DNA of 64,000 nucleotides from Sphingopyxis lindanitolerans. Its GTDB lineage: Bacteria; Pseudomonadota; Alphaproteobacteria; Sphingomonadales; Sphingomonadaceae. Numbering within the stretch: the stretch's first letter is position 1; each line of letters opens with the position of its first letter. A model generated the notes under the pieces. The model ran no database searches and was not told the DNA's origin. It worked only from the letters and a program-made list of their open reading frames with translations. Location: contig NZ_CM009578.1 in NCBI RefSeq assembly GCF_002993885.1, positions 3,184,009 to 3,248,008 on the forward strand. Reading direction: 5' to 3'. Shown in pieces: positions 47,824-62,680 of this stretch. Both the position numbers and the translations under genes were made by a program.

Positions 47824-47870
47824 CGGTGGGGTCTTAGTGGCGTTCGTCGGGCATTTCCATAGTCCCCGGC

Positions 47871-47979
47871 TTGTGCCCCTGCGAAGGCAGGGGCCCATCT
47901 CCCGCGATTACGGAATGACGCCGCGGGCCGGAAAGGGCGATAGGACCGGTGATGGGCCCCTGCCTTCGCAGGGGCACGA
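47871..47979. repeat. Palindromic intergenic repeat (GTGCCCCTGCGAAGGCAGGG type)
   Basis: Arms GTGCCCCTGCGAAGGCAGGG and CCCTGCCTTCGCAGGGGCAC are perfect reverse complements, about 70 bp apart. A diverged member of the family at 26069, it lies in the glpD/zwf divergent gap, close to both promoters. Confidence 0.8.
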
Positions 47980-48069
47980 ACGAAGAGAGGCTTGCCAGCC
48001 TACGTATGCCGCGTTGCATTCGGGCCATGCATCCTCCACCTAAGCTCGCGGATATCCAAGGGGATTGAA

Positions 48070-49539
48070 GTGAGCGTGAGCGTGAGAGTCGAAACCCTGA
48101 TCCTGTTCGGCGCAACGGGCGACCTTGCGCAGCGCATGCTGTTTCCCTCGCTCTATAACCTCCACGTCGACGGGCTGCTCGCCGAGGCGCTGACGATCGT
48201 CGCCTCGGGGCGCTCGAAGATGGACCGCGCGGGCTGTCACGCGCTGGTGCGCGCGGCGCTGGCCGATCATCTTTCCGCCGATCGGCTCGACGAGGCGCAG
48301 ATCGCGGGCTTTCTGGATCGCATCGACTATTGCCCGGTCGATGCCGGCGCGGGCACCGGCTATGACGACCTCGCCGCATTGCTCGGCGACCGGCTCGGGC
48401 GGCCGCTCGGCGCCTATCTGTCGACCCCGCCGTCGATGTTCGGTCCGATCGCGGAGGGGCTTGCGGGCGCGGGCATCGCCTGCGCCGAATGCCGCATCGC
48501 GATGGAAAAGCCGATCGGTCACGACCTCGCTTCGTCGCGCGCCGTCAACGAGCAGGTCGGCCGCGCCTTCGCCGAGGATCATATCTTTCGCATCGACCAT
48601 TATCTCGGCAAGGAAACGGTCCAGAACCTCCTCGCGCTGCGCTTTGCCAACATGCTGTTCGAGCCTTTGTGGAACGCGCAGGCGATCGACCATGTCCAGA
48701 TCACCGTCGCCGAGACGGTCGGCCTTGAGGGTCGCGTCTCCTATTATGACGGGGTCGGCGCGCTCAAGGACATGGTGCAGAACCATATGCTCCAATTGCT
48801 CGCGATCATCGCGATGGAGCCGCCCGCCAGCGTCTCGTCGACCGCGGTGCGCGACGAGAAGGTCAAGCTGCTCCGCAGCTTGCGCAAGATGAGCGCCGCC
48901 GACGTCAAGGCGCACAGCGTCAAGGGCCAATATAGCAGCGGCGCGGTGAACGGCGGCGCGGTCGCGGGCTATGCCGACGAGCTTGGTCATCCGTCGAACA
49001 CCGAAACCTTCGTCGCGATCAAGGCCTATATCGACAATTGGCGCTGGAAGGGCGTGCCCTTCTATTTGCGCACCGGCAAGCGGATGCCGCAGCGCAAGTC
49101 GGAGGTGCTGATCCAGTTCAAGCCGGTGCCGCACAATATCTTCGCGCGCGGCGGCGCGGGCAAGCTCGATGCCAATATGATGATCATCAATCTGCAGCCC
49201 GAGGAGAATATCCGGGTCAAGGTGATGGCGAAGCAGCCGGGGCTCGACCGCGACGGCGTCAAGCTGAAAGAGGTCACGCTCGACGTCTCGCTCTCGCACA
49301 GCTTCGCGGGCGAGCGGCGGCGGATCGCCTATGAACGCCTGCTGCTCGATTTCATCGAGGGCGAGCAGACTTTGTTCGTGCGCCGCGACGAGGTCGAGGC
49401 GCAGTGGCAATGGATCGATTCGATCCTCGGCGCCTGGGCCGAGATCGACCTGGCGCCGCAGAGCTACACCGCCGGAAGCTGGGGCCCGTCGAGCGCGATC
49501 GCGCTGATCGAGCGCGACGGAGCGAGCTGGCATGATTGA
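48070..49539 (+). CDS. zwf: Glucose-6-phosphate 1-dehydrogenase
   Basis: First step of the Entner-Doudoroff and pentose-phosphate pathways. 489 aa. The nucleotide motif is LFGATGDLAQRM and the substrate motif FRIDHYLGKETVQN. The start is GTG 48070 (AAGGGG just upstream); GTG 48076 and 48082 are alternatives in the VSVSVRV stretch. edd and eda follow on the same strand, with palindromic repeats in each gap. pgl and glk, often in this operon in sphingomonads, are absent here. Confidence 0.96.
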   Translation: MSVSVRVETLILFGATGDLAQRMLFPSLYNLHVDGLLAEALTIVASGRSKMDRAGCHALVRAALADHLSADRLDEAQIAGFLDRIDYCPVDAGAGTGYDDLAALLGDRLGRPLGAYLSTPPSMFGPIAEGLAGAGIACAECRIAMEKPIGHDLASSRAVNEQVGRAFAEDHIFRIDHYLGKETVQNLLALRFANMLFEPLWNAQAIDHVQITVAETVGLEGRVSYYDGVGALKDMVQNHMLQLLAIIAMEPPASVSSTAVRDEKVKLLRSLRKMSAADVKAHSVKGQYSSGAVNGGAVAGYADELGHPSNTETFVAIKAYIDNWRWKGVPFYLRTGKRMPQRKSEVLIQFKPVPHNIFARGGAGKLDANMMIINLQPEENIRVKVMAKQPGLDRDGVKLKEVTLDVSLSHSFAGERRRIAYERLLLDFIEGEQTLFVRRDEVEAQWQWIDSILGAWAEIDLAPQSYTAGSWGPSSAIALIERDGASWHD

Positions 49540-49563
49540 GTTTGCCATCACGCCCAGAAACTC

Positions 49564-49648
49564 CGTTCGCCCTGAGCTTGTCGAAGGGCAGTCCTTTCTT
49601 TGGGCATCGCAAGGAAGAACGGTCCTTCGGCAAGCTCAGGACAAACGG
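49564..49648. repeat. Palindromic repeat (CGTTCGCCCTGAGCTTGTCG type)
   Basis: CGTTCGCCCTGAGCTTGTCG and a near reverse complement CTTCGGCAAGCTCAGGACAAAC bracket about 40 bp between zwf and edd. A close relative lies at 59636. Confidence 0.8.
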
Positions 49649-49657
49649 TTTTGAAGT

Positions 49658-51499
49658 ATGACTGACCTCCACCCCACCATCGCCGCGGTCACCGATCGCA
49701 TCGTCGCCCGCAGCGCGCCGCGCCGCGCCGCCTATCTGGGCCTGATGCAGCGCCAGCGCGACGCCGGCACCAATCGCGGCAACCTCTCGTGCGGCAACCT
49801 TGCGCACGGCTTTGCCGCATCCGGGGACGACAAGCCCGCGATCCGCTCGGGCGCCGAAATGAACATCGGCATCGTCACCGCCTACAACGACATGCTGTCG
49901 GCGCACCAACCCTATGGCCGCTACCCCGAACAGATCAAATTGTTCGCGCGCGAGGCCGGGGCGACCGCGCAGGTCGCGGGCGGGGTTCCCGCGATGTGCG
50001 ACGGGGTGACGCAGGGGCAGGCGGGGATGGACCTGTCGCTGTTCAGCCGCGACACCATCGCGCAGGGCACCGCGATCGCGCTCAGCCATGCGATGTTCGA
50101 GGGCGCGGCCTTGCTCGGCATTTGCGACAAGATCGTCCCCGGCCTGCTGATCGGCGCGCTGCGTTTCGGCCATCTGCCGACGATCCTGATCCCCGCCGGG
50201 CCGATGCCCTCGGGGCTCGCCAACAAGGAAAAGCAGCGCGTCCGCCAGCTCTATGCCGAGGGCAAGGCGACCCGCGACGAACTGCTCGAGGCCGAGGCGG
50301 CGAGCTATCACAGCGCGGGCACCTGCACCTTCTATGGCACCGCGAACTCGAACCAGATGATGATGGAAGTGATGGGGCTCCACATCCCCGGCAGCGCCTT
50401 CGTCAATCCGGGCACCAAGCTGCGGCAGGAACTGACCCGCGCCGCGACGCACCGGCTGACCGCGATCGGCTGGGACGGCGACGATTACCGTCCGCTGGCA
50501 CGCTGCATCGACGAAAAGGCGATCGTCAACGCCTGCGTCGGCCTGCTCGCGACGGGCGGCTCGACCAATCATGCGATCCATTTGCCGGCGATCGCGCGCG
50601 CCGCCGGGATCATCATCGACTGGCAGGATTTCGATGAACTCAGCCATGCGGTGCCGCTGCTCGCGCGCGTCTATCCGAACGGTGCGGGCGATGTGAACCA
50701 TTTTCACGCCGCGGGCGGGATCGGCTTCGTCGTGCGCGAGTTGCTCGGCGCCGGGCTTTTGCATGGCGATATTCTCACCGTCGGCGGGACGATGGCCGAC
50801 TATGCCGCCGAGCCCGTGCTGGTGAACGACGAACTCCACTGGCAGGCCGCGCCCGCCGCAAGCCGCGACGAGGCGATGCTGCGCCCGGTCGCCGCGCCTT
50901 TCTCGCCCGATGGCGGGATGCGGCTGCTCGCCGGCAATCTCGGCCGCGCGATCATCAAGACGAGCGCGGTCGCCGAGGATCGCTGGACGATCGAGGCGCC
51001 GTGCCGGATTTTCGACGACCAGAATCAGGTGCTGACCGCCTTCAAGGCGGGCGAACTCGATCGCGATGCCGTCGTCGTCGTCCGCTTTCAGGGCCCGCGC
51101 GCCAACGGCATGCCCGAACTCCACAAGCTGACCCCGGCCTTGGGCGTGTTGCAGGATCGCGGTTTTCGCGTCGCGCTGCTCACCGACGGCCGCATGTCGG
51201 GGGCGAGCGGCAAGGTGCCCGCGGTGATCCATCTGTCGCCCGAGGCGCTGCCCGGCATCGACGGCGTCAGCGGCCCGCTCGCCTATCTGCGCGACGGCGA
51301 TCTGGTGCGCATCTGCGCCGCGAAGGGCGAGGTGATCGCGCTGGTCGAGGACGCCATATGGGCCGCACGTTCGCCCGCCGCGCCGCCGCCTCCCGCGCTC
51401 GGCGTCGGCCGCGAGTTGTTCGCGCTGTTCCGTATCCACGCCGATGAGGCGGAGAAAGGCGGCTCGGCGATGCTGGCGGCGATGGAGACGATCATTTAA
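49658..51499 (+). CDS. edd: 6-phosphogluconate dehydratase
   Basis: Converts 6-phosphogluconate to KDPG, the Entner-Doudoroff committing step. 613 aa, IlvD/Edd family with an iron-sulfur cluster. Cluster cysteines fit [20 protein letters not shown] and [30 protein letters not shown] and [27 protein letters not shown] (quoted in parts) are typical Edd segments. Followed by eda after a repeat. Confidence 0.96.
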
Positions 51500-51502
51500 C
51501 TC

Positions 51503-51580
51503 CGTCATCCCGGCGAAAGCCGGGATCTCGACGGTGCAACATGACGCAAGGCAGAGATCCCGGCCTTCGCCGGGATGACG
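51503..51580. repeat. Palindromic repeat (CGTCATCCCGGCG type)
   Basis: CGTCATCCCGGCGAAAGCCGG on the left, mirrored by CCCGGCCTTCGCCGGGATGACG on the right, about 35 bp apart. It sits between edd and eda, ending 17 bp before the eda start codon, close to its ribosome site. Confidence 0.82.
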
Positions 51581-51597
51581 ATGAAAGAAATGCAGCC

Positions 51598-52215
51598 ATG
51601 AGCCAATCCATTGACCAGATCATGGCGCTCGCCCCCGTCATCCCGGTGATCGTCATCGACCGTGTCGAGGACGCGGTGCCGATGGCCGAAGCGCTCGTCG
51701 CGGGCGGCTTGCCGGTGCTCGAAGTGACGCTGCGCACTCCCGCCGCGCTCGACGCGCTGACCGCGATGAAATCGGTCAAGGGCGCGATCGTCGGCGCGGG
51801 GACCGTGCTCGATCCCGCGATGCTCAGCGGCGCGATCCATGCGGGCGCCGAATTCATCGTCTCGCCCGGCCTCACCGACAATCTGGGCAAGGCCGCGACC
51901 CAGAGCGGCATTCCCTTCCTCCCCGGCATCGCCAATGCCGGCGACATCATGCGCGGCATGGACCTTGGCCTGTCGCGCTTCAAATTCTTCCCCGCGGCGA
52001 CAAGCGGCGGCATCCCGGCGCTCAAGGCGCTGGCGGGCCCGTTCGGACAGGCGCGCTTCTGCCCGACCGGCGGGATCAGCGCCGCGACCGCCCCCGATTG
52101 GCTCGCGCTCGATGCGGTGCTGTGCGTCGGGGGGAGTTGGGTGGTGCCGTCCGGGCCGCTCGACCCGGCGCGGATCGAGGCTCTGGCAAGGGAAGCGGCG
52201 GCGCTCAAGCTCTAA
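51598..52215 (+). CDS. eda: KDPG aldolase (2-dehydro-3-deoxyphosphogluconate aldolase)
   Basis: Cleaves KDPG to pyruvate and glyceraldehyde-3-phosphate. 205 aa TIM barrel. The active-site Glu is in VLEVTLRTPAAL (about 46), the Schiff-base Lys in RFKFFPAATSGG (about 130), and the phosphate loop in CPTGGISAATAPDWL. I take ATG 51598, not an upstream ATG at 51541, which lies inside the palindromic repeat. It completes zwf-edd-eda. Confidence 0.96.
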   Translation: MSQSIDQIMALAPVIPVIVIDRVEDAVPMAEALVAGGLPVLEVTLRTPAALDALTAMKSVKGAIVGAGTVLDPAMLSGAIHAGAEFIVSPGLTDNLGKAATQSGIPFLPGIANAGDIMRGMDLGLSRFKFFPAATSGGIPALKALAGPFGQARFCPTGGISAATAPDWLALDAVLCVGGSWVVPSGPLDPARIEALAREAAALKL

Positions 52216-52377: not shown

Positions 52378-53916
52378 GTGCCAAGGCCACAGCCGCATTT
52401 GGAAGAAGTCCTGGCGTCCGAACCCGGGCCGCATATCGCCGCGCTGTTCGATTTCGACGGCACGATCATCTCGGGCTATTCGGCGACCGCGATGCTGCGC
52501 GAGAAATTCCAGCGCCGCGAAATGTCGGTCGAGGAGATCGCCGAGACCGCGCAGGTCGTCGCGCAGCACAGCCTGGGCAATATCGGCTTTTCAGGGCTGA
52601 TGACCGCCGCCGCCAAATTCATGAAGGGCGTCGACGAGGAAAGCTTCATCGCGTTCGGCGAGGAGCTTTACAAGAAGCATATCGCGCGCAAAATCTATCC
52701 CGAAACCCGCGCGATCATCGAGGCGCATCAGGCGAAGGGGCACCGCGTCGCGATCATCTCGTCGGCGACGATCTACCAGATCGAACCGACCGCGCGCGAC
52801 CTTGGCATCACCGACATCAAATGCTCGGCGTATGAAATCGAGGACGGCGTCTTCACGGGCGAGATCATCCGGCCGCTGTGCTTCGGCGAGGGCAAGGTGC
52901 TCGCCGCCGAGGAACTGGCGGCCGAATATGGCCTCGATCTCGACAACAGCTTTTTCTATTCGGACAGCGACGACGATATCGAACTGCTCGACCGCGTCGG
53001 CAAGCCGCGCCCGCTCAACCCGAACATGAAATTGAAGGGCATCGCCGACGAACGGAACTGGCCGGTGCAGCGCTTCGCGAGCCGTGGCACGCCGTCATGG
53101 GTCGATTATACCCGCACCATCTATGCGACCGGCTCGCTCGTCGGCGCGTTCGCCGCGGGGTTGCCGATCTGGGCGCTCACCCGGTCGCAGCGCGAGGCGG
53201 TCAATTTCTCGATGGGGCTGTTCGGCGACTTCGCGACTGCGATCACCGGCGTCGAGCTGGAGGTCGAGGACGAGAAATATCTCTGGTCGTCGCGCCCGTG
53301 CGTCTTCATCTTCAACCACCAGAGCAAGGCGGACGTGATGATCCTCGCCAAGCTCATCCGCCGCGACATGGGCGGGGTGGGGAAGAAGGAGATCAGGGAC
53401 ATCCCCATTTTGGGGAAGCTGATGGAATGGGGCGGCACCGTCTTCGTCGACCGCGCCGACGGCAAGAGCGCGATCAAGGCGATGGAGCCGCTGGTCGATG
53501 CGATCCAGCAGGAAGGCAAGTCGATCTGCATCGCGCCCGAGGGCACACGCAGCCTGACCCCAAAGCTCGAACCCTTCAAAAAGGGCGCCTTTCACCTCGC
53601 GATGCAGGCGGGGGTGCCGATCGTCCCGATCGTCATCCACAACGCCACCGATGTCGCGCCGAAGAATGAATTCGTCATGCGCCCCGCGACGGTCCGCGTC
53701 ACCGTGCTGCCGCCGGTCGATACATCCGGGTGGAGCGTGCGGACGCTGAACGGCCATGTCCGCGACGTGCGGAACCTGTTCCTGCGGACGCTGGGGCAGG
53801 TCGAGGAAGCAGCGGAGGCGGCCGAGGCGAAACCGGCGAAGAAGCCAGCGGAAAAGAAGGCCGCGCCGAAACCCGCGAAGAAGAAGGTCGCAGCGAAGAA
53901 GGCGGCAAAGGGGTGA
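52378..53916 (+). CDS. HAD-family phosphatase fused to PlsC-type acyltransferase, with Lys/Ala-rich tail
   Basis: A 512-aa fusion. Residues about 20-215 are a HAD-IB (SerB-like) phosphatase with ALFDFDGT (D25, D27), SSAT and YSDSDDD motifs. Residues about 300-470 are a lysophosphatidate acyltransferase with FNHQSKAD (H314-D319, HX4D) and APEGTRS (about 386-392). Residues about 480-512 are a Lys/Ala/Pro-rich tail (PAKKPAEKKAAPKPAKKK). The same domain order occurs in mycobacterial Rv2483c. It could make phosphatidate and dephosphorylate it to diacylglycerol. The start is GTG with GGGGAGAGG upstream. It heads the lipid gene run. Confidence 0.88.
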   Translation: MPRPQPHLEEVLASEPGPHIAALFDFDGTIISGYSATAMLREKFQRREMSVEEIAETAQVVAQHSLGNIGFSGLMTAAAKFMKGVDEESFIAFGEELYKKHIARKIYPETRAIIEAHQAKGHRVAIISSATIYQIEPTARDLGITDIKCSAYEIEDGVFTGEIIRPLCFGEGKVLAAEELAAEYGLDLDNSFFYSDSDDDIELLDRVGKPRPLNPNMKLKGIADERNWPVQRFASRGTPSWVDYTRTIYATGSLVGAFAAGLPIWALTRSQREAVNFSMGLFGDFATAITGVELEVEDEKYLWSSRPCVFIFNHQSKADVMILAKLIRRDMGGVGKKEIRDIPILGKLMEWGGTVFVDRADGKSAIKAMEPLVDAIQQEGKSICIAPEGTRSLTPKLEPFKKGAFHLAMQAGVPIVPIVIHNATDVAPKNEFVMRPATVRVTVLPPVDTSGWSVRTLNGHVRDVRNLFLRTLGQVEEAAEAAEAKPAKKPAEKKAAPKPAKKKVAAKKAAKG

Positions 53917-53930
53917 CGGTTCATACAAAA

Positions 53931-54014
53931 CCCGTTCGCATCGAGCGAAGTCGAGAGGCCCATCGGGGTGACGCTATGCCGAAGGGTGTCTCGACTTCGC
54001 TTGATGCGAACGGG
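53931..54014. repeat. Palindromic repeat (CCCGTTCGCATCGAGCGAAG type)
   Basis: CCCGTTCGCATCGAGCGAAG and a mirrored arm ending GATGCGAACGGG flank about 40 bp between the HAD-PlsC and PlsB-like genes. A shorter relative with CCCGTTCGTG arms lies at 60598. Confidence 0.78.
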
Positions 54015-54038
54015 CCTTTGGCGGAGCGCGATTGAACG

Positions 54039-56378
54039 GTGGCCGACGGCACCCCCCGCACCGGAATCGTAGCGGAGCAGGCGGCCGACCGGCTTTATAT
54101 CATCGACGCGCGGCATGGCGTTGAACGGCGCATCCTACTCGACTGGATCCACGCGACGTCCGGCGACACCGAACCGGTCTGGGCCAGCCTCGATATCGAG
54201 GATGGCGACCATGCGCTGCCCGTCGATGCGCTGCAGACGCGGCTCGGTGGATCGCCGTCGCGGCAGGTCGTGCCGCTGCGCGTCGCGTGGCGGATGCCCG
54301 CTTTCGACCGCGACCGCGCGCTCAAATTCCGTCACCTGATCTTTGGCGACCCGCGCCATCCGGGGCCGCTGCGCGCGCGGCTCATCCTCTGGCGCGACCG
54401 GCGCCGCGCGCAGATTCTCGTCGGCGAAGCCGCGACGCTCGATATGCTGCGTGACCGTTTCTGCGCGCAGACCGGCGGCGGCGATGGCGAGAGCGCCGAC
54501 AGCCCCGAATATGCGGCCTTCGTCGCGCGGCAGGCGGCGCTCGCGCTCGACGTCGCCGAACGCGGCATACGCGGCAGCCGGTACAAGGTGCCGCGCTTCG
54601 TCGCCGACAGTTTGCGCACCAGCCCCAAGTTTCGCGCCGCGCTCGCCGAGCTTTCGGAGCGGGCCGGTCGCCCGGTCGGCGACCTCTACCGTGAGGCGCG
54701 GCCGCTGATGAAGGAGGTCATCGCGCGCCCTTCGGCGCTGTTCCTCGACCTTCGCGCCCGCCTCGACCGCATGATGTTCGGCGGCTACGAGCCCGCCATG
54801 GAGGTCGACGCCGCCGAGATCGCCAAGCTGCGCTCGGTCCTGCGCGAACATCCGACCTGCATCCTCTTCACCCACAAAACCTATATCGACGGCGCGACCC
54901 CCAGCCGCCTCACCTATGACAATGACATGCCGATGCTGCACCTGTTCGGCGGCGCCAACCTCGATTTCGCGGTGATGGGCGAATTCTTTCGCCGTTCAGG
55001 GATGATCTTCATCCGCCGCAGTTTTCAGGACCAGCCGGTCTACAAGATCGTCCTGCGCCATTATATCGCGTGGCTGCTCGCCAAGCGTTTCCCGCTGAGC
55101 TGGGCGTTCGAGGGGACGCGCTCGCGGCTCGGCAAGCTGGCGCCACCCAAATATGGGCTGATGAAATATGTCCTCGACGCCGCGCATGCGACGGGGACCG
55201 GGGGCGTGCATTTCGTCCCCTTCGTCACCAGCTTCGACCTGATCCGCGACGTCGAGGAATATGCCGCCGAGCAGGCGGGGCGGAGCAAGAAGCCCGAGAG
55301 TCTGAGCTGGTTCATCGGTTACATGAAAAGCCTCAAGCAGCCGTCGGGCCGCATCAGGCTCGACATCGGCAACCCCGTCGTCATCGACGAAGCCCCCGGC
55401 CCCGACGACAGGCGCGCGCTCGAAACGATCGCCTTTGCGGTCGCGGTCGAGGCCAATCGGGTGACGCCGCTGACGGTTACGTCGGTGATGTGCCTGATCC
55501 TGCTCGGCCTCGCGCCGCGCGGCGCCACCGCCGCCGAACTGCTCGCCACGATCGGCGCCGTCACCGATTGGGCGCGGGCGCGCGGCATCCGGATCAGCAG
55601 CGAACTCGCAAGCCGCGACGACGCCGCTCTCTCGACCACCGTCGATACGCTCGTCGCGAGCGGGCTGCTGACCCGCTACGAGGCGGGGAGCGAGAATGTC
55701 TATTCGATCGATCCCGCCAAACATCCGATGGCGAGCTATTACCGCAACATCATCGCGCATCATTTCCTCGATCGCGCGATGATCGAACTGGCGCTGTTCG
55801 CGCTTCGCGACGCCGACGGCGGCGACGCCACCACCGCCTTCTGGGCGAAGATCGACCGGCTGCGCGATCTGTTCAAATTCGAATTCTTCTATCCGCCGCG
55901 CGACGAGCATCGCGCCGCGATCGAGGCCGAACTCGCGCGCATCGATCCCGTCTGGGACCGCCGCCTCGCCGGCGGCGACCGCGGGGTCGCGCAGCTTCTC
56001 CGCCGCTGCCAGCCTGTCGTCGGCCATGCGATATTGCTGCCGTTCGCCGAGGCCTATTCGGTCGTCGCCGACCTGCTGGCGCGCGCCAGGCCCGGCGACG
56101 AGGTCGAGGCGAAGCTGCTGCTCGATACGGCGCTGGTCGAGGGGCGGCAGGCCTATCTGCTGCGCCGGATCAGCAGCGAGGCGGCGATCGGCAAGCTCTT
56201 GTTCGAAAATGGCCTGTCGCTGATGCGCCACATGGGGCTTGCCGGGACCGCGACCCCCGACAGCCTCGCCGCGCGGCGCGCGCTGCTTGTGGAACTGCGC
56301 GGGCTCGCCAATGTGATGGAATCGATGCGGCTGTCGACGACGGCGCTCGCCGATAGGATGCCGGCGGCGGGAGGATGA
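54039..56378 (+). CDS. Glycerol-3-phosphate acyltransferase, PlsB-like
   Basis: 779 aa. The acyltransferase core has FTHKTYIDG (H279-D284, the HX4D motif), then IFIRRSF and AFEGTRSRLGKL (about 360-375), the order expected for PlsB/GPAT. A long N-terminal part (about 1-240) and a helical C-terminal part (about 500-779) match the large PlsB2-type enzymes of actinobacteria. It acylates sn-glycerol-3-phosphate to lysophosphatidate, the first committed lipid step. GTG 54039 start. It lies between the HAD-PlsC fusion and the WS/DGAT gene, the same trio as Rv2482c-Rv2484c. Confidence 0.88.
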   Translation: MADGTPRTGIVAEQAADRLYIIDARHGVERRILLDWIHATSGDTEPVWASLDIEDGDHALPVDALQTRLGGSPSRQVVPLRVAWRMPAFDRDRALKFRHLIFGDPRHPGPLRARLILWRDRRRAQILVGEAATLDMLRDRFCAQTGGGDGESADSPEYAAFVARQAALALDVAERGIRGSRYKVPRFVADSLRTSPKFRAALAELSERAGRPVGDLYREARPLMKEVIARPSALFLDLRARLDRMMFGGYEPAMEVDAAEIAKLRSVLREHPTCILFTHKTYIDGATPSRLTYDNDMPMLHLFGGANLDFAVMGEFFRRSGMIFIRRSFQDQPVYKIVLRHYIAWLLAKRFPLSWAFEGTRSRLGKLAPPKYGLMKYVLDAAHATGTGGVHFVPFVTSFDLIRDVEEYAAEQAGRSKKPESLSWFIGYMKSLKQPSGRIRLDIGNPVVIDEAPGPDDRRALETIAFAVAVEANRVTPLTVTSVMCLILLGLAPRGATAAELLATIGAVTDWARARGIRISSELASRDDAALSTTVDTLVASGLLTRYEAGSENVYSIDPAKHPMASYYRNIIAHHFLDRAMIELALFALRDADGGDATTAFWAKIDRLRDLFKFEFFYPPRDEHRAAIEAELARIDPVWDRRLAGGDRGVAQLLRRCQPVVGHAILLPFAEAYSVVADLLARARPGDEVEAKLLLDTALVEGRQAYLLRRISSEAAIGKLLFENGLSLMRHMGLAGTATPDSLAARRALLVELRGLANVMESMRLSTTALADRMPAAGG

Positions 56379-56396
56379 ACGTGCCTGACTTTCCTT

Positions 56397-56426
56397 CGTC
56401 ATTGCGTCGCTCCGCTCGCAATGACG
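56397..56426. repeat. Short palindrome CGTCATTGCG/CGCAATGACG
   Basis: A 10-bp perfect inverted repeat with 10-base centre, just before the WS/DGAT ribosome site. It matches the outer arms of the large repeat at 35823. Confidence 0.65.
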
Positions 56427-56454
56427 GGATGGTCGATGTTGGATGGAGGTTCCC

Positions 56455-58053
56455 ATGCTTAAACAACTCAGCGCCCAGGATGCCCAGTTCCTCTATACGC
56501 AGACCGCGAACAATCTGACCCACATCATGGGGGTCTATATCTATGACCCCTCGACCGCGCCGGGCGGCTTTGTGCGGTTCAAGGACATCATCGCCCACGT
56601 CGAAAGCCGCGTCCACACCTCGCCGCTGTTCAAGCGCCGCCTGCACCGGCTGCCCTTCGACCTCGACCATCCCTATTGGGTCGAGGACGAGCATTTCGAC
56701 ATCGAAGCGCATATGAGCCACGCGCGCCTGCCCGAACCCGGCGACTGGCGGCAATTCTGCATCGCGGTCGCGCGCTGGTTCTCGAAACCGATGGATATGA
56801 ACCGGCCGCTCTGGGACATTTATATCATTGAAGGGCTCGACCGCATCCCGGGCATCCCGAAGGGCAGCTTCGCGATGCTCCACCGCGTCCATCACGCCGC
56901 GGTTGACGGCGCATCGGGCGCGCATGCCTTCATCGCGATGAGCGATATCGATGCCAGCGGCACCCCCGCCATTGCCGAACCGCCGCCGGTCGAAGAATTC
57001 GGCCGCCCGCCGTCGAGCGCCGAGACGGTGACCCGCGCCTGGGGCGCCTCGATGCAGTCGCCGGTCAAGTTCATGAATGCGCTGCTCAAGATGTCGCCCG
57101 CGATCGTCGCGTCGGCAAGGCGGTCGATGGCCGAGGGCGGGATGACCGCCGGGGTTCCCGAAACGCGCTTCAACGTCCCCGTCGGCCCGCACAAGATGTT
57201 CGAGGGCACGACGGTGGCGCTCGCCGACATTGCCGAAATCCGCCGGAAAGTGCCGGGCGCGACGGTCAACGACGTCGTGCTGACCACCGTCGGCGGCGCG
57301 CTGCGCAAATATCTGGCGAAGCACAAGGAATTGCCGAAGGAAAGCCTCGTCGCGGTCGCGCCGATCAACCTGCGCGGCAAGGAAAAGGACGCGGGAAAGG
57401 CCTCGACCCCCGGCAACCAGGTCTCGGCGATGAGCGTGCCGATCCGCACCGACATCGCGGGTCCGCTCGAACGGCTCGCGGCGATCCGTGCCTATACGGT
57501 CGAGGCGAAAGAGGCAAAGGCCGGGGTCAGCGCCCGCATCATGACCGACCTGTCGCAGCATATCCCCGGCGCGACGATGGCGGCGGTCGCGCGCATCGTG
57601 ACGAGCGAGCGCTTCGCGGTGCGCGGCACCAACCTCTTCATCTCGAACGTGCCGGGCGCGCAGGTGCCGCTCTATCTCGCGGGCGCGCGGCTGGTGCAGC
57701 AGCACGGCATGGCGCCGCTCGCAAACAATATGGGACTGTTCATCGCGACCCCCAGCTACAACGGCCGCATCGCCTTTTCGATCGTCGGCGAGCGCGACAT
57801 CATGCCCGACATTGCTTTTTTCCGCGAATGTATCGACGAAAGCTTCGCCGACCTGATGGCGGCGGCGCCGAAGGTGGAGAAGCCGCCCGCGAAGCCGAAA
57901 GCCGCGCCGAAGCCGCCCGCAAAGCCCAAGGCAAAGGCGAAACCGGCGCCTGTCGCGAAACGTGCGGCGAAGACGGCGTCGAAAGCCGCCGCCAAGCCCA
58001 AGCCGAAGGCGACGCGAAAGAAGAAGCCCCCTGTTTCGTCACCCCGGACTTGA
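56455..58053 (+). CDS. Wax ester synthase/diacylglycerol acyltransferase (WS/DGAT) with basic tail
   Basis: 532 aa. The catalytic motif is HHAAVDG (H146-D151) in the CAT-like domain, with PLWDIYIIEGL before it and NLFISNVPG (about residues 395-403) in the second half, both WS/DGAT signatures. It makes triacylglycerol from diacylglycerol, or wax esters from fatty alcohols. The GGAGG at 56445 decides ATG 56455. Residues about 473-532 are an unusual Lys/Ala/Pro-rich tail (KPKAKAKPAPVAKRAAK and more), probably disordered. The last five codons and the stop lie inside a palindromic repeat (58037-58065), so the C-terminus may have been altered by repeat insertion. Confidence 0.9.
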   Translation: MLKQLSAQDAQFLYTQTANNLTHIMGVYIYDPSTAPGGFVRFKDIIAHVESRVHTSPLFKRRLHRLPFDLDHPYWVEDEHFDIEAHMSHARLPEPGDWRQFCIAVARWFSKPMDMNRPLWDIYIIEGLDRIPGIPKGSFAMLHRVHHAAVDGASGAHAFIAMSDIDASGTPAIAEPPPVEEFGRPPSSAETVTRAWGASMQSPVKFMNALLKMSPAIVASARRSMAEGGMTAGVPETRFNVPVGPHKMFEGTTVALADIAEIRRKVPGATVNDVVLTTVGGALRKYLAKHKELPKESLVAVAPINLRGKEKDAGKASTPGNQVSAMSVPIRTDIAGPLERLAAIRAYTVEAKEAKAGVSARIMTDLSQHIPGATMAAVARIVTSERFAVRGTNLFISNVPGAQVPLYLAGARLVQQHGMAPLANNMGLFIATPSYNGRIAFSIVGERDIMPDIAFFRECIDESFADLMAAAPKVEKPPAKPKAAPKPPAKPKAKAKPAPVAKRAAKTASKAAAKPKPKATRKKKPPVSSPRT

Positions 58054-58065
58054 TCCGGGGTGACG
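58037..58065. repeat. Palindrome CGTCACCCCGGA/TCCGGGGTGACG overlapping a CDS end
   Basis: A 12-bp perfect stem with a short centre (CTTGA). It supplies the last codons and the TGA of the WS/DGAT gene. Probably also acts as a hairpin at the mRNA 3' side. Confidence 0.75.
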
Positions 58066-58152
58066 TGGGTGGGAATGCGGGCGTCAAAACAGTTGCCAAA
58101 GGCAACGTAACCCGCAAGAATCACCCAAAATGAAACAATGCAGGATGACCGA

Positions 58153-59601
58153 ATGATTTTTGCCCCGACGCTCAGCGCCGACGCCGAGCTTGCCAAAGCG
58201 CCCGACTATGCCGCCTGGGCGACGGCTGCGCGGGCGCATGACGCGAAATCGGGGATGCAGGCGTGGCGCCAGGCCGACGACAGCCAGCATTTCGACCATA
58301 AGGCGATCCGCGCCCGGCTCGAAAAGCTCCGCAAGCTGGCGGCGGCGAACGACGTCAAGGGGCTGCTTTTCGTCCTCAACGAGGGCATCCACGGCAATAT
58401 CGACGGCATGGGGCACGAGCGCCTTTATCAAAAGGCGCGCTTCGGCACCAAGATGCTGATCGAGGCCTATGTCGCCGAAGTTGTCGCCGCGCTGGAAAAG
58501 ATCGCCGCGTCGCGGTCGATCCCGCGCGAGGAAAAGCGCGATTTCTTCCGCCGCGCGCAGCATTGTTACGGCCGCTCGGCGCTTTTGCTCTCGGGCTCGG
58601 GCAGCTTCCTCTTCTTTCACGTCGGGGTGGTGAAGGCGCTGTGGGACGAAGGCGTGCTGCCCAATATCCTCGCGGGGTCGAGCGGCGGGGCGATTGTCGC
58701 GGCGATCGTCTGCACGCGCAAGAACGCCGATGTCGGGCCCTTTCTCGAAAGTCGGCGGCTCGCCAACCCCGATCGCGGCGAAGCGCTTCGCCGCCTCGCC
58801 CCCGACGAGGTGCGCGGGCGCCTTGCCGACCTGATCCCCGACCTGACCTTTCAGCAGGCTTATGAAATCAGCGGGCGGCATCTCAACGTGTCGGTCGCGC
58901 CCGCCGAAAAGCACCAGAACGGCCGCCTGCTCAACGCGATCACCGCGCCGAACGTGCTGATCCGCGAGGCGGTGCTGGCGTCGTGCGCGGTGCCCGGCGT
59001 CTTTCCGCCGGTCATGCTGATGGCGCGCGACGAGGGCGGCAACCGCGTCCCCTACCAGCCCGACCGGCGCTGGGTCGACGGGTCGGTGACCCACGACATC
59101 CCGACCAAGCGATTGGAACGCCTCTATGGCGTCAACCATCATATCGTCAGCCAGGCGAACCCGCTCGCGCTGCCCTTCGCCACCGACACGCGCAAGCAGA
59201 TGGCGCCGATCGAGGCGATTCAACATGCGTCGATCGCAACCTTCAAGGCGTGGCTCAACGCAAACATGGTGATCTTTCAAAAGCCGCTCGAACTGGTGCC
59301 GCCGCTCAACAGCCTCGCGAATATGGCGCGCTCGGTGATCAACCAGGATTATACCGGCGACATCAACATCATCCGCCCGCCCAAATATTGGTCGCCGACC
59401 AAGATCCTGTCCGACCTGTCGCAGGACGATATCGACGAACTGATCGACACCGGCCTGCGCACCGCCTGGCCCAAGGTCGAGATGGTGCGCACCCAGACCG
59501 CGATCAGCCGCGCGCTCGACGCGATCCTCGCAAAGATCGACAAGGCGGGCGACGACGGCCCCGGCCACCGTGCGTCGGCGCTCAAGAAAGCGGTGCGGTG
59601 A
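58153..59601 (+). CDS. Patatin-like lipase with DUF3336 domain
   Basis: 482 aa. An N-terminal DUF3336-type region (about 15-135; YAAWATAARAHD near 20 and FVLNEGIHGNI near 75) precedes a patatin domain with nucleophile Ser177 in LAGSSGGAIVAA and the dyad aspartate in RRWVDGSV (D309). This combination is that of yeast Tgl3/4/5 triacylglycerol lipases and bacterial relatives. CAGGA spaced 7 nt favours ATG 58153 over ATG 58138. It directly follows the WS/DGAT gene, suggesting storage-lipid turnover. Confidence 0.88.
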   Translation: MIFAPTLSADAELAKAPDYAAWATAARAHDAKSGMQAWRQADDSQHFDHKAIRARLEKLRKLAAANDVKGLLFVLNEGIHGNIDGMGHERLYQKARFGTKMLIEAYVAEVVAALEKIAASRSIPREEKRDFFRRAQHCYGRSALLLSGSGSFLFFHVGVVKALWDEGVLPNILAGSSGGAIVAAIVCTRKNADVGPFLESRRLANPDRGEALRRLAPDEVRGRLADLIPDLTFQQAYEISGRHLNVSVAPAEKHQNGRLLNAITAPNVLIREAVLASCAVPGVFPPVMLMARDEGGNRVPYQPDRRWVDGSVTHDIPTKRLERLYGVNHHIVSQANPLALPFATDTRKQMAPIEAIQHASIATFKAWLNANMVIFQKPLELVPPLNSLANMARSVINQDYTGDINIIRPPKYWSPTKILSDLSQDDIDELIDTGLRTAWPKVEMVRTQTAISRALDAILAKIDKAGDDGPGHRASALKKAVR

Positions 59602-59635
59602 GCGATGTGTTATCGGTCTGAATTGCTCTCTTTCG

Positions 59636-59722
59636 CGTTCGTGCTGAGCTTGTCGAAGCACCGTTCTTCTTTCGGCAGCGTCGGAAGAAAGAACGGTGCT
59701 TCGACAAGCTCAGGGCGAACGG
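59636..59722. repeat. Palindromic repeat (CGTTCGTGCTGAGCTTGTCG type)
   Basis: CGTTCGTGCTGAGCTTGTCG at the left and CGACAAGCTCAGGGCGAACG at the right, about 45 bp apart, with an inner mirrored CGGTTCTT-type segment. Related to the copy at 49564. It lies between the lipase and the following hydrolase, 13 bp before the next start. Confidence 0.8.
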
Positions 59723-59734
59723 TTGAGACTTAAC

Positions 59735-60583
59735 ATGGCGACGGGTGCAATCCTGCTGCCCGCCGTTTCGGCCGGCGCGGGCGCGAAGCTGCATGTCACC
59801 CACTGGCTTCCCGAAGGACCGCCAAAGGCGGTGGTGCTGCTCGCGCACGGCTATGCCGAACATGCCGGGCGCTATGCGCATGTCGCGAAGCGGCTGACCG
59901 ACGCCGGCTATGCCGTTTATGCGATCGATCATTGGGGTCACGGCCGGTCCGACGGCACCCCCGGTTTCGTGCCGCGCTTTTCGGCCTTCACCGACGGCAT
60001 GGCCGCACTGCTGGCGCTGGTCGAGGCCAATCATGCGGGGCTGCCGCGCCTGCTGCTCGGCCACAGCATGGGCGGGTTGATCGCGACCCTGTTCCTGATC
60101 GAGCGGCAGGACGCTTTCGCCGCCGCCGCGCTGTCCGGCCCCGCGATCGTCCCCGCCGCGCCGCCGTCGCGCTTCACCGTCTGGATCAGCCGCTTTCTGT
60201 CGCGCGTCTTTCCGCGCCTCGGCGTGCTGGCGCTCGACGCCAACGGGGTCAGCCGCGACCCCGCGGTCGTCGCCGCCTATCTTGCCGACCCGCTCGTCTA
60301 CACCGGCAAGATCGGCGCGCGGCTCGGCAAGGAATTCATGGAGGCAATGGCCGCCGCGCAGGCGGGCGCCGCAAAGATCACGCTCCCGATCCTGCTCCAG
60401 CACGGCGGCGCCGACAGCCTCGCCGCGCCCGAAGGCTCGCGCTATCTGTTCGAGCATGTGGCGTCGCAGGACAAGCGCCTCGAAATCTATCCCGGCCTGT
60501 TCCACGAAATCTATAACGAGCCCGAACAGGGCGCGGTGCTCGATGATCTGATCGGCTGGTTCGATGCGCATGTCGCAGCTTGA
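59735..60583 (+). CDS. Alpha/beta hydrolase, monoacylglycerol lipase-like
   Basis: 282 aa. HGYAEHAGRYAHVAKRL and DHWGHGRSDG are the hallmark strings of monoacylglycerol lipases (Hydrolase_4). The nucleophile is Ser111 in LLGHSMGG, the acid is in HGGADSLAAPEGS and the histidine in PGLFHEIYNEP. It would release glycerol and fatty acid from monoacylglycerol, completing lipid breakdown after the patatin lipase. No signal peptide, so cytoplasmic. Confidence 0.9.
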   Translation: MATGAILLPAVSAGAGAKLHVTHWLPEGPPKAVVLLAHGYAEHAGRYAHVAKRLTDAGYAVYAIDHWGHGRSDGTPGFVPRFSAFTDGMAALLALVEANHAGLPRLLLGHSMGGLIATLFLIERQDAFAAAALSGPAIVPAAPPSRFTVWISRFLSRVFPRLGVLALDANGVSRDPAVVAAYLADPLVYTGKIGARLGKEFMEAMAAAQAGAAKITLPILLQHGGADSLAAPEGSRYLFEHVASQDKRLEIYPGLFHEIYNEPEQGAVLDDLIGWFDAHVAA

Positions 60584-60597
60584 AGCCAGCCCCAATC

Positions 60598-60632
60598 CCG
60601 TTCGTGCCTCGACTTCGCTCGACACGAACGGG
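60598..60632. repeat. Short palindrome CCCGTTCGTG/CACGAACGGG
   Basis: A 10-bp perfect inverted repeat around CCTCGACTTCGCTCGA. It appears to be a half-size member of the element at 53931. It lies between two hydrolase genes. Confidence 0.7.
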
Positions 60633-60655
60633 TTGAGAGGGAAACCCTGTCCGTG

Positions 60656-61591
60656 ATGAAAATCCTCCTCACTCTCCTCGTCGCCCCGCTGATCGCGCTC
60701 GCGCTCCTCTATTTCGTCTTTCCCGGCCGCCTCGTCGCGCTCGGCCGCTGGCTGCTTCGCAGGCGCGGCGGTACGGTGCAGAAGAGCGTCACCGTCGAAG
60801 GCCGCGCCTGGCCCTATCTGGAGGGCGGCGATCCCGCGAAGCCGACCCTGCTTCTCGTCCACGGGTTTTCGGGCGACAAGGATAATTGGTCCTTTCTCGC
60901 CCCCTATATGACCCGCGACTATCGCATCATCGCCCCCGACCTGCCGGGCTTTGGCGAGAATGAGCGCAATCCCGACCTCGCCTATGATATCGCGGCGCAG
61001 ACCGCGCGGCTGAAGGCCTTTGCCGACGCGCTCGGCCTGGAGCGCCCGCACATCGCGGGGAACAGCATGGGCGGCTGGATCGCGCTGCGCTATGCGATCG
61101 ACTATCCCACCGCGCTCGCCAGCCTGACCTTGCTCGACAATGCCGGGGTCAACGGCGCCGAGGAAAGCGAGCTTCAGAAACTGGCCGCGAACGAGGATTA
61201 TAACCCGCTCGTCCTCGCCGGTATCGACGATGCCGACCGGCTGGTGGCGATGGTCGTCCACAAGCCGCCGCATGTCCCGGCGCGGCTGAAACCCGTGCTC
61301 TACGCCGACGCGCTCCGATATCGCGACCAGCTCGACGCGATCTTCTGGGTGATCGCGATCGAGGGCCACGACCATCCGCTCAACGACCGGCTCGGCGAGG
61401 TGAAGGTGCCGACGCTGATCCTGTGGGGACGCCACGACAAGCTGCTCGACGTAAGCTGCGTCCCGGTGCTCGAGGCGGGCATCGCGAACAGCCGGAGCCT
61501 CATCTTTGAGCAGGTCGGCCATGTTCCGATGATCGAGGACCCCAAGGCGACCGCCGACGCGATGAAGGGCTTTCTCGCGCAGCTTGGCTGA
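60656..61591 (+). CDS. Membrane-anchored alpha/beta hydrolase (lipase-like)
   Basis: 311 aa. An N-terminal hydrophobic anchor (about 3-22, LLTLLVAPLIALALLYFVF) is followed by an alpha/beta hydrolase with LLVHGFSGDKDNW, nucleophile Ser in IAGNSMGGWIA (about 140), acid in WGRHDKLLD and histidine in GHVPMIEDP. The HGFSGDKDNW and GNSMGG strings resemble Moraxella/Psychrobacter Lip3-type lipases and bacterial ABHD6-like monoacylglycerol hydrolases. The neighbours suggest a membrane-side lipase for glycerolipids. ATG 60656 or GTG 60653 may be the start. Confidence 0.86.
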   Translation: MKILLTLLVAPLIALALLYFVFPGRLVALGRWLLRRRGGTVQKSVTVEGRAWPYLEGGDPAKPTLLLVHGFSGDKDNWSFLAPYMTRDYRIIAPDLPGFGENERNPDLAYDIAAQTARLKAFADALGLERPHIAGNSMGGWIALRYAIDYPTALASLTLLDNAGVNGAEESELQKLAANEDYNPLVLAGIDDADRLVAMVVHKPPHVPARLKPVLYADALRYRDQLDAIFWVIAIEGHDHPLNDRLGEVKVPTLILWGRHDKLLDVSCVPVLEAGIANSRSLIFEQVGHVPMIEDPKATADAMKGFLAQLG

Positions 61592-61678
61592 TCGTCGCCT
61601 CCGCCTTCGCGGGGGCGACGTCGCGCTTGCCAACACTCCTGTCCCGCGCCACTCTCGCCCCGAACAGGGGAGAGACAC

Positions 61679-62680
61679 ATGCGCCTGAAAGTGGGCCTGC
61701 TCGGTGGGGGGAGCTGGGGGACGACGGTCGCGTCGGTGGTGTCGCGCAACGCGCCGATCACGCTGTGGGCGCGCGACGCCGAAACGGTTGATGGCATCAA
61801 TTCCGATCATGAGAATCGCAAATATCTGCCCGGCATCCGGCTCCCCGCCGCCCTGCGCGCGACCGGCGACATGGCCGAGGTCGTCGCGGGCGCCGATGTG
61901 CTGGTGATGGGCGTGCCGTCGCACAGCTTTCGCGGCGTGCTCGAGGAAGCGCGCCGGCACCTGCGCCCCTGGGTGCCGGTGATCAGCCTGACCAAGGGGC
62001 TCGAGCTTTCGTCGGGCAAGCGGATGACCGAGTTGATCGAGGAGATTTTGCCCGGCCATCCGGTCGGCGTCCTCACCGGCCCCAATCTCGCGCGCGAGAT
62101 CATGACCGGGCAGGCGGCGGCGAGCGTCTTGTCGATGGCGGACGAGATCGTCGTCCGCGCGCTCCAGCCGATCTTCCATTCGGGGCTGTTCCGCGTCTAC
62201 ACCAACACCGACCTGCTCGGCTGCGAACTGGGCGGAGTGCTCAAGAATATCATCGCGATCGCGGTCGGCATGGGCGACGGGCTCGGCGCCGGCGACAATA
62301 CGCGCGCCGGGCTGATGACGCGCGGGCTGGCCGAGATCACCCGGCTCGGCGTCGCGATGGGCGGGCGGCCCGAGACGTTCGCGGGGCTCACCGGCATGGG
62401 CGATCTGATCGCGACCTGCACCAGCCCGCTGTCGCGCAACCGCCACGTCGGGGTCGAACTCGGCAAAGGGCGGCACATCGACGACATCATCGCGGGAATG
62501 AACATGGTCGCCGAGGGGGTGAAGAGTGCGCCGACGGTGATGGCGCTCGCCGACAAATTTGACCGCGCGATGCCGATCGCGCGCGACGTGTTCGACGTGA
62601 CGCAGGGCAGGCGCGACGCGCAGGACGTGTTCCGCGGCCTCCTGAAATCGAGCGTCGGCGACGAGGCGCATCCGGGGTAG
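61679..62680 (+). CDS. gpsA: Glycerol-3-phosphate dehydrogenase [NAD(P)+]
   Basis: Reduces dihydroxyacetone phosphate to sn-glycerol-3-phosphate for lipid synthesis. 333 aa. The dinucleotide motif is LLGGGSWGTTVASVVS at the N-terminus. The catalytic lysine lies in GGVLKNIIAIAVGMGDGL (about 190), and GLTGMGDLIATCTSPLSRNR (about 240) is the family signature. It is last in the run that starts with the HAD-PlsC fusion and supplies the PlsB-like enzyme with its acceptor. A hairpin with a T-rich tail follows. Confidence 0.96.
   Translation: MRLKVGLLGGGSWGTTVASVVSRNAPITLWARDAETVDGINSDHENRKYLPGIRLPAALRATGDMAEVVAGADVLVMGVPSHSFRGVLEEARRHLRPWVPVISLTKGLELSSGKRMTELIEEILPGHPVGVLTGPNLAREIMTGQAAASVLSMADEIVVRALQPIFHSGLFRVYTNTDLLGCELGGVLKNIIAIAVGMGDGLGAGDNTRAGLMTRGLAEITRLGVAMGGRPETFAGLTGMGDLIATCTSPLSRNRHVGVELGKGRHIDDIIAGMNMVAEGVKSAPTVMALADKFDRAMPIARDVFDVTQGRRDAQDVFRGLLKSSVGDEAHPG

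What the first reader, a model, noticed from the sequence alone, without database searches (positions are those of the whole stretch)
52378..62680. A compact triacylglycerol synthesis-and-turnover locus with its glycerol-3-phosphate supply
Same-strand genes encode, in order, a HAD phosphatase/PlsC fusion, a PlsB-like acyltransferase, WS/DGAT, a DUF3336-patatin lipase, a monoacylglycerol-lipase-like enzyme, a membrane-anchored alpha/beta hydrolase and gpsA. Together they could run DHAP to G3P to lysophosphatidate to phosphatidate to DAG to TAG, and back to glycerol. The first three types recur as the neighbouring Rv2482c-Rv2484c genes in Mycobacterium tuberculosis (from memory), an unexpected parallel for an alphaproteobacterium. 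Storage lipid in sphingomonads is little studied compared with PHA, and glpD lies just upstream for glycerol reuse. All motifs are seen directly; the cycle is inferred.
Basis: partly seen in the sequence, partly recalled or inferred. Interest (0 to 1): 0.8.

Follow-up and report, generated by a model that had tools for sequence, protein, structure and literature searches.

The report
Bacterial fat-storage operon with charged-tail enzymes
A Sphingopyxis bacterium carries one seven-gene block that could make storage fat from sugar and break it down again; the fat-making half of such blocks is already known from other bacteria, but two of its enzymes end in long positively charged tails like those of proteins that organise storage granules, which I did not find reported in the open papers searched.

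Summary
Seven same-strand genes lie at 52378-62680 in a Sphingopyxis genome: HAD-PlsC, PlsB, WS/DGAT, DUF3336-patatin, monoacylglycerol lipase, a PlaF/ABHD6-type hydrolase and a second gpsA. glpD is 4.5 kb away on the opposite strand; zwf-edd-eda lies between. The seven-gene order is complete in 28 of 31 distinct sphingomonad loci with enough flank, even where neighbouring genes differ. In many relatives the genes nearly touch; in the window five of six gaps hold a palindrome. The locus is patchy in the order, and the sphingomonad versions group with gammaproteobacterial (Lysobacterales) ones; its gpsA is 39% identical to the housekeeping copy. The synthetic half is already published for rhodococci/mycobacteria, Parasphingorhabdus and Gammaproteobacteria: a new variant, not a new kind. 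So do 35 of 44 sampled WS/DGATs encoded elsewhere, though not this genome's second one. The tails resemble those of lipid-inclusion proteins (MLDS, HBHA); their role is untested. TAG as product, the HAD step and co-transcription are inferred.

The parts
52378..53916 (+). HAD-IB phosphatase / PlsC (AGPAT) fusion, 512 aa
53800..53913 (+). Lys/Ala/Pro-rich C-terminal tail of HAD-PlsC (residues 475-512)
   Evidence: Composition conserved in relatives; pLDDT about 51 from residue 481 on
54039..56378 (+). plsB-like glycerol-3-phosphate acyltransferase, 779 aa
   Evidence: NF002886 936 bits; PDB relatives of the family profile: GPAT 9vuq, human GPAT1 8e4y
56443..58053 (+). WS/DGAT, 536 aa, HHxxxDG motif
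   Evidence: TIGR02946, PF03007+PF06974; 6chj E 2e-42
57868..58050 (+). Lys/Ala/Pro-rich C-terminal tail of WS/DGAT (residues 476-536)
   Evidence: absent from the genome's other WS/DGAT
58138..59601 (+). DUF3336-patatin lipase, 487 aa
   Evidence: PF11815 + PF01734; no PDB relative by sequence at E<=0.001
59696..60583 (+). monoacylglycerol lipase (Hydrolase_4); likely true start ATG 59735
   Evidence: mycobacterial MGL 7ozm E 2.7e-61, human MGLL E 1.5e-45
60653..61591 (+). N-terminally membrane-anchored alpha/beta hydrolase, PlaF/ABHD6 type
   Evidence: 6i8w (PlaF) E 1.6e-61 over residues 2-308, ABHD6 7ots E 2.8e-30
61679..62680 (+). [quoted passage not shown]
   Evidence: NF009098; groups with gammaproteobacterial cluster copies, not with housekeeping gpsA
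53931..54014 (.). REP-type palindrome between HAD-PlsC and plsB
   Evidence: 36-nt arms 89% complementary; this junction is 3 nt in L063, L066, L083, L097
56397..56427 (.). palindrome between plsB and WS/DGAT
   Evidence: read from the sequence
59636..59721 (.). REP-type palindrome between DUF3336-patatin and lipase
   Evidence: 38-nt arms 89% complementary; its core motif occurs 16 + 16 times in the genome
60597..60632 (.). palindrome between lipase and PlaF-like gene
   Evidence: read from the sequence
61593..61620 (.). palindrome between PlaF-like gene and gpsA
   Evidence: read from the sequence
47992..52215 (+). zwf-edd-eda (Entner-Doudoroff), directly upstream; neighbours in the Sphingopyxis-type loci, not in the Parasphingorhabdus type
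46306..47898 (-). glpD, divergent
   Evidence: NF008899

Best explanation
The locus is a horizontally mobile, operon-like neutral-lipid unit. Proposed route: the second GpsA makes G3P from DHAP; PlsB acylates it with acyl-CoA; the PlsC half of HAD-PlsC makes phosphatidate; the HAD half (or one of two PAP2 proteins elsewhere) makes DAG; WS/DGAT makes TAG. The DUF3336-patatin lipase starts TAG breakdown, the monoacylglycerol lipase ends it, and the PlaF/ABHD6-like hydrolase feeds acyl chains of phospholipids or lysolipids into the same pool. The basic tails of HAD-PlsC and WS/DGAT most likely hold both enzymes on anionic surfaces (membrane, nascent lipid body, perhaps nucleoid). Shown: gene content, order conservation, a cluster-specific gpsA, a separate PlsY, the tails. 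Inferred: the reactions, TAG as product, transfer, co-transcription, tail role.
For: Family models; PDB relatives. Seven-gene order in 28 of 31 distinct sphingomonad loci, while the 10 Parasphingorhabdus/Sphingorhabdus-type loci of that set have no zwf/edd/eda in the stretch held: the seven genes are the unit. Junctions of -43 to +30 nt in many relatives. Of 7 same-genus genomes (own included), the 5 with the cluster have two gpsA and one DUF3336 gene; the 2 without it have one gpsA and no DUF3336. PlsY, the other GPAT route, is elsewhere in the genome. PF07993, the one reductase-type domain searched, gave only weak, generic hits. The same core is an operon in RHA1 (PMC4850399, passages). TAG inclusions are reported for a sphingomonad, Sphingomonas sp. 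EGY1, as cited in PMC10351704 (passage).
Against: No lipid was measured. HAD-PlsC-PlsB-gpsA also occurs in genomes where no WS/DGAT was found (7 of 58 searched), so the core need not serve TAG. RHA1 atf9, plsB and plsC transcripts are down, not up, under nitrogen limitation with TAG accumulation (PMC4850399, passages). Palindromes fill most of the window's gaps, so one transcript is not certain; the promoter/terminator scan was at chance level. The PlaF-like gene points to phospholipids. A PHA synthase is also encoded. G085 carries five of the genes up to its contig end, but only one gpsA was found in that genome.
Confidence: 0.7

Rival explanations
1. The locus is first of all an acyl-CoA-dependent phospholipid synthesis and remodelling unit (a second phosphatidate route plus a Lands-cycle phospholipase), with TAG as overflow.
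For: The core HAD-PlsC-PlsB-gpsA stands without an adjacent WS/DGAT in 25 of 85 loci, 20 of them with at least 9 kb downstream, and in 7 of 58 genomes where no WS/DGAT was found; the last hydrolase is closest to phospholipase A PlaF (PMC9132575, passages read, identifies 6I8W as PlaF and compares it with ABHD6).
Against: Sphingomonad versions have WS/DGAT, DUF3336-patatin and monoacylglycerol lipase as fixed neighbours; PlsY is already present. The 7 genomes without WS/DGAT are MAGs or single-cell type records and may be incomplete.
Confidence: 0.3
2. The HAD domain is not a phosphatidate phosphatase but acts on a small soluble phosphoester, for example glycerol 3-phosphate, giving glycerol or limiting G3P.
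Against: Fusion to PlsC and conserved linkage to acyltransferases; RHA1 authors suggest such HADs as PAPs (PMC4850399, passages). A fold shows no substrate.
Confidence: 0.3
3. WS/DGAT makes wax esters or other esters rather than TAG.
For: The family (TIGR02946) covers both activities.
Against: Kennedy-pathway neighbours; only weak PF07993 hits (the same search also hits all 14 control genomes). Other reductase families were not searched.
Confidence: 0.1
4. The basic tails are neutral low-complexity drift typical of GC-rich proteobacteria.
For: Tail sequence identity is close to that of shuffled tails; a few other ORFs have such tails; some relatives have weak ones or none, and the genome's second WS/DGAT has none.
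Against: 67 of 82 HAD-PlsC and 38 of 48 WS/DGAT ORFs versus 0 of 363 other cluster and flank genes and 6 of 476 other ORFs; charge and K/A/P content stay high in distant lineages. The criterion was set after seeing the tails.
Confidence: 0.2

Closest known systems
atf9-plsB-plsC operon of Rhodococcus jostii RHA1 / Rv2482c-Rv2484c of M. tuberculosis (PMC4850399, passages read; the labels of Rv2482c and Rv2484c are recalled)
   Same: WS/DGAT, PlsB and HAD-PlsC fusion in one operon; HAD suggested as PAP
   Different: No lipases or gpsA in that operon in the passages read; the two actinobacterial HAD-PlsC seen here (L124, L125) lack the basic tail
Kennedy-pathway clusters of Parasphingorhabdus halotolerans JK6, Arenicella and Woeseiaceae (PMC10351704: section 23 whole, section 26 part 2, passages)
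   Same: Complete Kennedy set by WS/DGAT in Alpha- and Gammaproteobacteria; gpsA next to GPAT and a putative lipase noted in gamma scaffolds
   Different: The seven-gene unit with DUF3336-patatin, MGL and PlaF-like gene, and the tails, are not described in the parts I read; figures and supplements were not seen
MLDS/JLP of R. jostii, HBHA/TadA, AlgP (PMC5504291 passages; PMC6176652 passages; PMC9239181 abstract)
   Same: Lys/Ala/Pro, PAKKA or KPAA C-terminal tails involved in lipid-inclusion or granule organisation, DNA or lipid binding
   Different: In the texts seen these are not described as lipid-synthesis enzymes; here the tails are on biosynthetic enzymes. PMC6176652 says HBHA-related proteins were found only in actinobacteria; I did not search these genomes for them
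PlaF of Pseudomonas aeruginosa (6i8w; PMC9132575 passages) and human ABHD6 (7ots)
   Same: PlaF is the best PDB sequence match to gene 6, over residues 2-308; ABHD6 is fourth
   Different: Substrate of gene 6 untested

Membership tests
Kennedy-pathway TAG operon (atf9-plsB-plsC type) | GPAT, HAD-AGPAT fusion and WS/DGAT adjacent on one strand | tested here: met
Kennedy-pathway TAG operon (atf9-plsB-plsC type) | transcribed as one unit | not testable with these tools
   Only junction spacing in relatives; needs RNA
Kennedy-pathway TAG operon (atf9-plsB-plsC type) | TAG formed | not testable with these tools
   needs lipid analysis
WS/DGAT (TIGR02946) | score over curated cut-off and HHxxxDG | tested here: met
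   395 vs 310 bits; motif in the window and in 51 of 51 ORFs of the loci
Glycerol-3-phosphate acyltransferase NF002886 | score over curated cut-off; HX4D and EGTRSR motifs | tested here: met
   936 vs 721 bits; motifs in 82 and 84 of 85 ORFs of the loci
HAD-IB phosphatase + AGPAT fusion | both domains with catalytic residues | tested here: met
   D25, D27, T29, K173, D196, H314, D319, E388 invariant in 46 aligned sequences
Phosphatidate phosphatase | activity on phosphatidate | not testable with these tools
   fold and linkage only
SDP1/Tgl-type TAG lipase (that DUF3336-patatin marks these is recalled) | DUF3336 followed by patatin with GxSxG and a DG dyad | tested here: met
   GxSxG in 41 of 41, DG in 40 of 41 ORFs of the loci
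SDP1/Tgl-type TAG lipase (that DUF3336-patatin marks these is recalled) | hydrolyses TAG | not testable with these tools
   needs an enzyme assay
Monoacylglycerol lipase | specific homology to characterised MGLs and GHSMG serine motif | tested here: met
   motif in the window; exact GHSMG in 39 of 44 ORFs of the loci
PlaF/ABHD6 membrane hydrolase | homology over the full length including the N-terminal anchor | tested here: met
   6i8w, residues 2-308 of 312
TadA/HBHA/MLDS lipid-inclusion proteins | separate protein with its own lipid-droplet or coiled-coil domain (PMC5504291, PMC6176652, passages) | tested here: not met
   Here the tail follows enzyme domains
TadA/HBHA/MLDS lipid-inclusion proteins | K/A/P-rich basic C-terminal tail | tested here: met

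The most novel reading that the evidence does not exclude
In Sphingomonadales and marine Gammaproteobacteria the job of the actinobacterial lipid-body organisers (TadA/HBHA/MLDS) is built into the enzymes: HAD-PlsC and WS/DGAT carry histone-H1-like basic tails that bring phosphatidate-to-TAG conversion together and tether nascent lipid bodies to anionic membrane or nucleoid, so that spacing and inheritance of lipid bodies are set by the synthases themselves.
Probability: 0.35. Interest if true: 0.75.

Novelty: new variant of a known kind. Interest (0 to 1): 0.5.

Why it matters
If true, one compact and mobile unit supplies G3P, TAG synthesis and lipolysis in a genus whose genome also encodes PHA synthesis, and would be a handy source of parts for bacterial oil. 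The polybasic tails give a directly testable idea of how Gram-negative bacteria place and divide lipid bodies. The HAD-PlsC fusion makes the open question of the bacterial phosphatidate phosphatase in TAG synthesis testable with one protein.

Tried and rejected
Rejected: chance neighbourhood (order conservation); simple vertical inheritance throughout the order (PlsB matched in 11 of 147 genomes, of which the strong ones are 5 same-genus genomes, own included, plus G085 and the rearranged G136; the other 4 have E 1.9e-7 to 6.2e-4); gpsA as a moved housekeeping copy; a wax-ester cluster (only weak PF07993 hits). Second gpsA outside the cluster set: G136 (has a rearranged cluster) and G009 (second match a 35-position fragment) also have two matches; G085, with five cluster genes up to its contig end, has one. 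DUF3336 also stands alone in G091.

Tail loss against WS/DGAT absence: tail in 47 of 49 genomes with and 3 of 7 without WS/DGAT (Fisher p 0.0013; 2 of 58 had no tail data). The four tail-less ones without WS/DGAT sit in one Halieaceae clade and genomes may be incomplete, so I treat it as suggestive only; L051 and L058 lack the tail but have WS/DGAT. My regular expression for HAD motif IV missed 31 of 82 ORFs; the alignment shows that Asp invariant in 46 sequences, so I use that. Exact PAKKA-type motifs are uneven: two or more PAKKA-like words in 39 of 84 HAD-PlsC tails, but only 5 of 52 cluster WS/DGAT tails, and none in the window's WS/DGAT tail.

Led nowhere: PDB sequence search for DUF3336; DUF3336 in papers (one paper, on toxin-antitoxin families); promoter/terminator scan. 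Recurring neighbours in gamma loci (M48 and S11 peptidases, acyl-CoA dehydrogenase, TonB receptor) did not look like part of the unit. The quick trees carry no bootstrap and have long branches; two rows labelled Gammaproteobacteria (L050, L058) fall inside the sphingomonad PlsB clade, by transfer or by mislabelled bins.


Full report
WHAT IS THERE. The window lies in a 4.37 Mb genome; the named ones among the 120 PlsB relatives listed are nearly all Sphingopyxis. Seven + strand ORFs at 52378-62680 match, in order, HAD-PlsC, PlsB, WS/DGAT, DUF3336-patatin, a Hydrolase_4 lipase, an Abhydrolase and GpsA. PDB sequence matches sharpen two labels: gene 5 is a monoacylglycerol lipase (mycobacterial MGL 7ozm, E 2.7e-61; human MGLL 1.5e-45), and gene 6 is closest to phospholipase A PlaF (6i8w, E 1.6e-61), with ABHD6 fourth (7ots, 2.8e-30) (6I8W is named as PlaF in PMC9132575, passages read). 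glpD is on the opposite strand at 46306-47898; zwf-edd-eda lies between it and the cluster.

IS IT A UNIT. Among 31 distinct sphingomonad loci with at least 6.9 kb downstream of plsB, 28 have all seven genes in the same order and strand. L062 stops after the lipase, L039 lacks gpsA, and the diverged L019 is rearranged; three further loci without a gamma label or outside the sphingomonads by label (L035, L101) or labelled gamma (L050) were left out of this count and are not complete. In 27 loci (two duplicates included) at least one Entner-Doudoroff gene lies in the locus, whereas the 10 Parasphingorhabdus/Sphingorhabdus-type loci of the count have none in the stretch held: the seven genes stay together while their neighbours change. 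Gaps in many relatives are -43 to +30 nt. In the window five of the six gaps hold a palindrome and the sixth (WS/DGAT to DUF3336) only a short hairpin; the HAD-PlsC/plsB junction, 122 nt here, is 3 nt in L063, L066, L083 and L097. The core of one repeat kind occurs 16 + 16 times in the genome, often as inverted pairs.

DEDICATED AND PATCHY. Of 147 genomes of the order, 11 have a PlsB match and seven a strong one: five same-genus genomes (own included), G085 and G136. In a 398-genome phylum sample four matched at E <= 1e-60: the own genome, one other of the genus, and two with partial matches near the threshold. Of the 7 same-genus genomes, the five with the cluster have two gpsA and one DUF3336 gene; the two without it (2.3 Mb) have one gpsA and no DUF3336. 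The genome's other gpsA is 39% identical to the cluster copy, while gammaproteobacterial cluster copies are 60-73% identical. In the gpsA tree the 45 cluster copies separate from 15 housekeeping copies at 100*. In the gpsA, PlsB and HAD-PlsC trees the main sphingomonad clade joins the Lysobacterales loci (three MAGs) at SH-aLRT 91, 87 and 93, none of them starred. Transfer between classes is the simplest reading; its direction is not shown. The genome also has PlsY, two PAP2 genes, a PHA synthase and a second WS/DGAT in a stretch with truB and nusA.

THE CORE IS BROADER THAN TAG. The commonest non-sphingomonad layout is HAD-PlsC-PlsB-gpsA (25 of 85 loci; 20 with at least 9 kb downstream), mostly Halieaceae by record title. 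Of 58 genomes searched, 51 have at least one WS/DGAT somewhere; seven, all Halieaceae by title, gave none. So the core makes G3P and phosphatidate, and WS/DGAT and lipases look like add-ons. This is the strongest argument for the phospholipid rival.

THE TAILS. HAD-PlsC and WS/DGAT end in Lys/Ala/Pro-rich tails. By one criterion, set after seeing them, 67 of 82 HAD-PlsC and 38 of 48 WS/DGAT ORFs qualify, against 0 of 363 other cluster and flank genes and 6 of 476 other ORFs, some of which are probably spurious frames. Net charge is at least +8 in 63 of 84 and 45 of 52 tails (duplicates included). Over chosen lineage representatives (12 and 8 loci), bodies are at a median 62% and 64% identity and tails at 37% and 32%, against 32% and 32% for shuffled tails: composition is kept, sequence hardly. 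The AlphaFold model is confident in both domains and not in the tail. The two actinobacterial relatives and L019, L051 and L058 lack tails. Of WS/DGATs outside the cluster, 35 of 44 have tails of net +8 or more, up to +42, several with PAKKA-like repeats (the 44 are L133-L136, 39 of 40 fetched regions and L001; chosen from the top PF03007 scores, not at random). The genome's own second WS/DGAT has none (+3). PAKKA motifs of MLDS bind DNA (PMC5504291, passages); the K/A/P tail of HBHA is needed for lipid binding and inclusion formation (PMC6176652, passages); the KPAA tail of AlgP is needed for polyphosphate-granule spacing (PMC9239181, abstract). The window's WS/DGAT tail has the composition but no PAKKA-like word. 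I found no report of such tails on these enzymes in searches, which list only part of what they match and cover no subscription papers.

COMPARISON WITH THE LITERATURE. The synthetic half is known: PMC4850399 (passages) for atf9-plsB-plsC in rhodococci and mycobacteria, and PMC10351704 (section 23 whole, section 26 part 2, passages) for Parasphingorhabdus and Gammaproteobacteria, including gpsA beside GPAT and a putative lipase. The latter also cites a TAG-accumulating Sphingomonas sp. EGY1. The full seven-gene synthesis-plus-lipolysis unit was not described in what I read, and in searches (18 papers; 12 of 16 listed) no title or abstract start shown is about TAG in Sphingopyxis. The Entner-Doudoroff neighbours fit the reported induction of that pathway during TAG accumulation in RHA1 (PMC5327559, abstract); this is a parallel, not evidence for the window.

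VERDICT. Observation confirmed; interpretation partly supported; new variant of a known kind.

Noticed in passing
window 53931-54014, 56397-56427, 59636-59721, 60597-60632, 61593-61620: Palindromes in five of six cluster gaps, with some of these junctions nearly empty in other Sphingopyxis; the core of one repeat kind (59636-59721) occurs 32 times in the genome, and this copy gives the lipase ORF a spurious N-terminus.
   Followed up: partly
L134, L135, L153, L157, L161 and others: WS/DGATs outside the cluster in gammaproteobacterial genomes carry very long K/A/P tails (up to net +42), some with PAKKA-like repeats.
   Followed up: partly
L091, L093, L094, L098: Halieaceae loci with HAD-PlsC-PlsB-gpsA lack the basic tail of HAD-PlsC, and no WS/DGAT was found in their genomes.
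   Followed up: partly
L019 (G136): Rearranged, diverged version in another genus of the same family: HAD-PlsC and lipase on one strand, an overlapping gpsA-PlsB pair on the other.
   Followed up: no
L067: Second, diverged copy in Sphingomonadales bacterium EhC05, with the DUF3336 gene between HAD-PlsC and PlsB.
   Followed up: no
window 47992-52215: zwf-edd-eda directly upstream in Sphingopyxis-type loci; a possible NADPH and triose link to lipid synthesis.
   Followed up: no
[not shown]
   Followed up: no
L127 (G091): Stand-alone DUF3336-patatin gene beside amidohydrolase, AraC-type and TonB-receptor genes; no PlsB match in that genome.
   Followed up: partly
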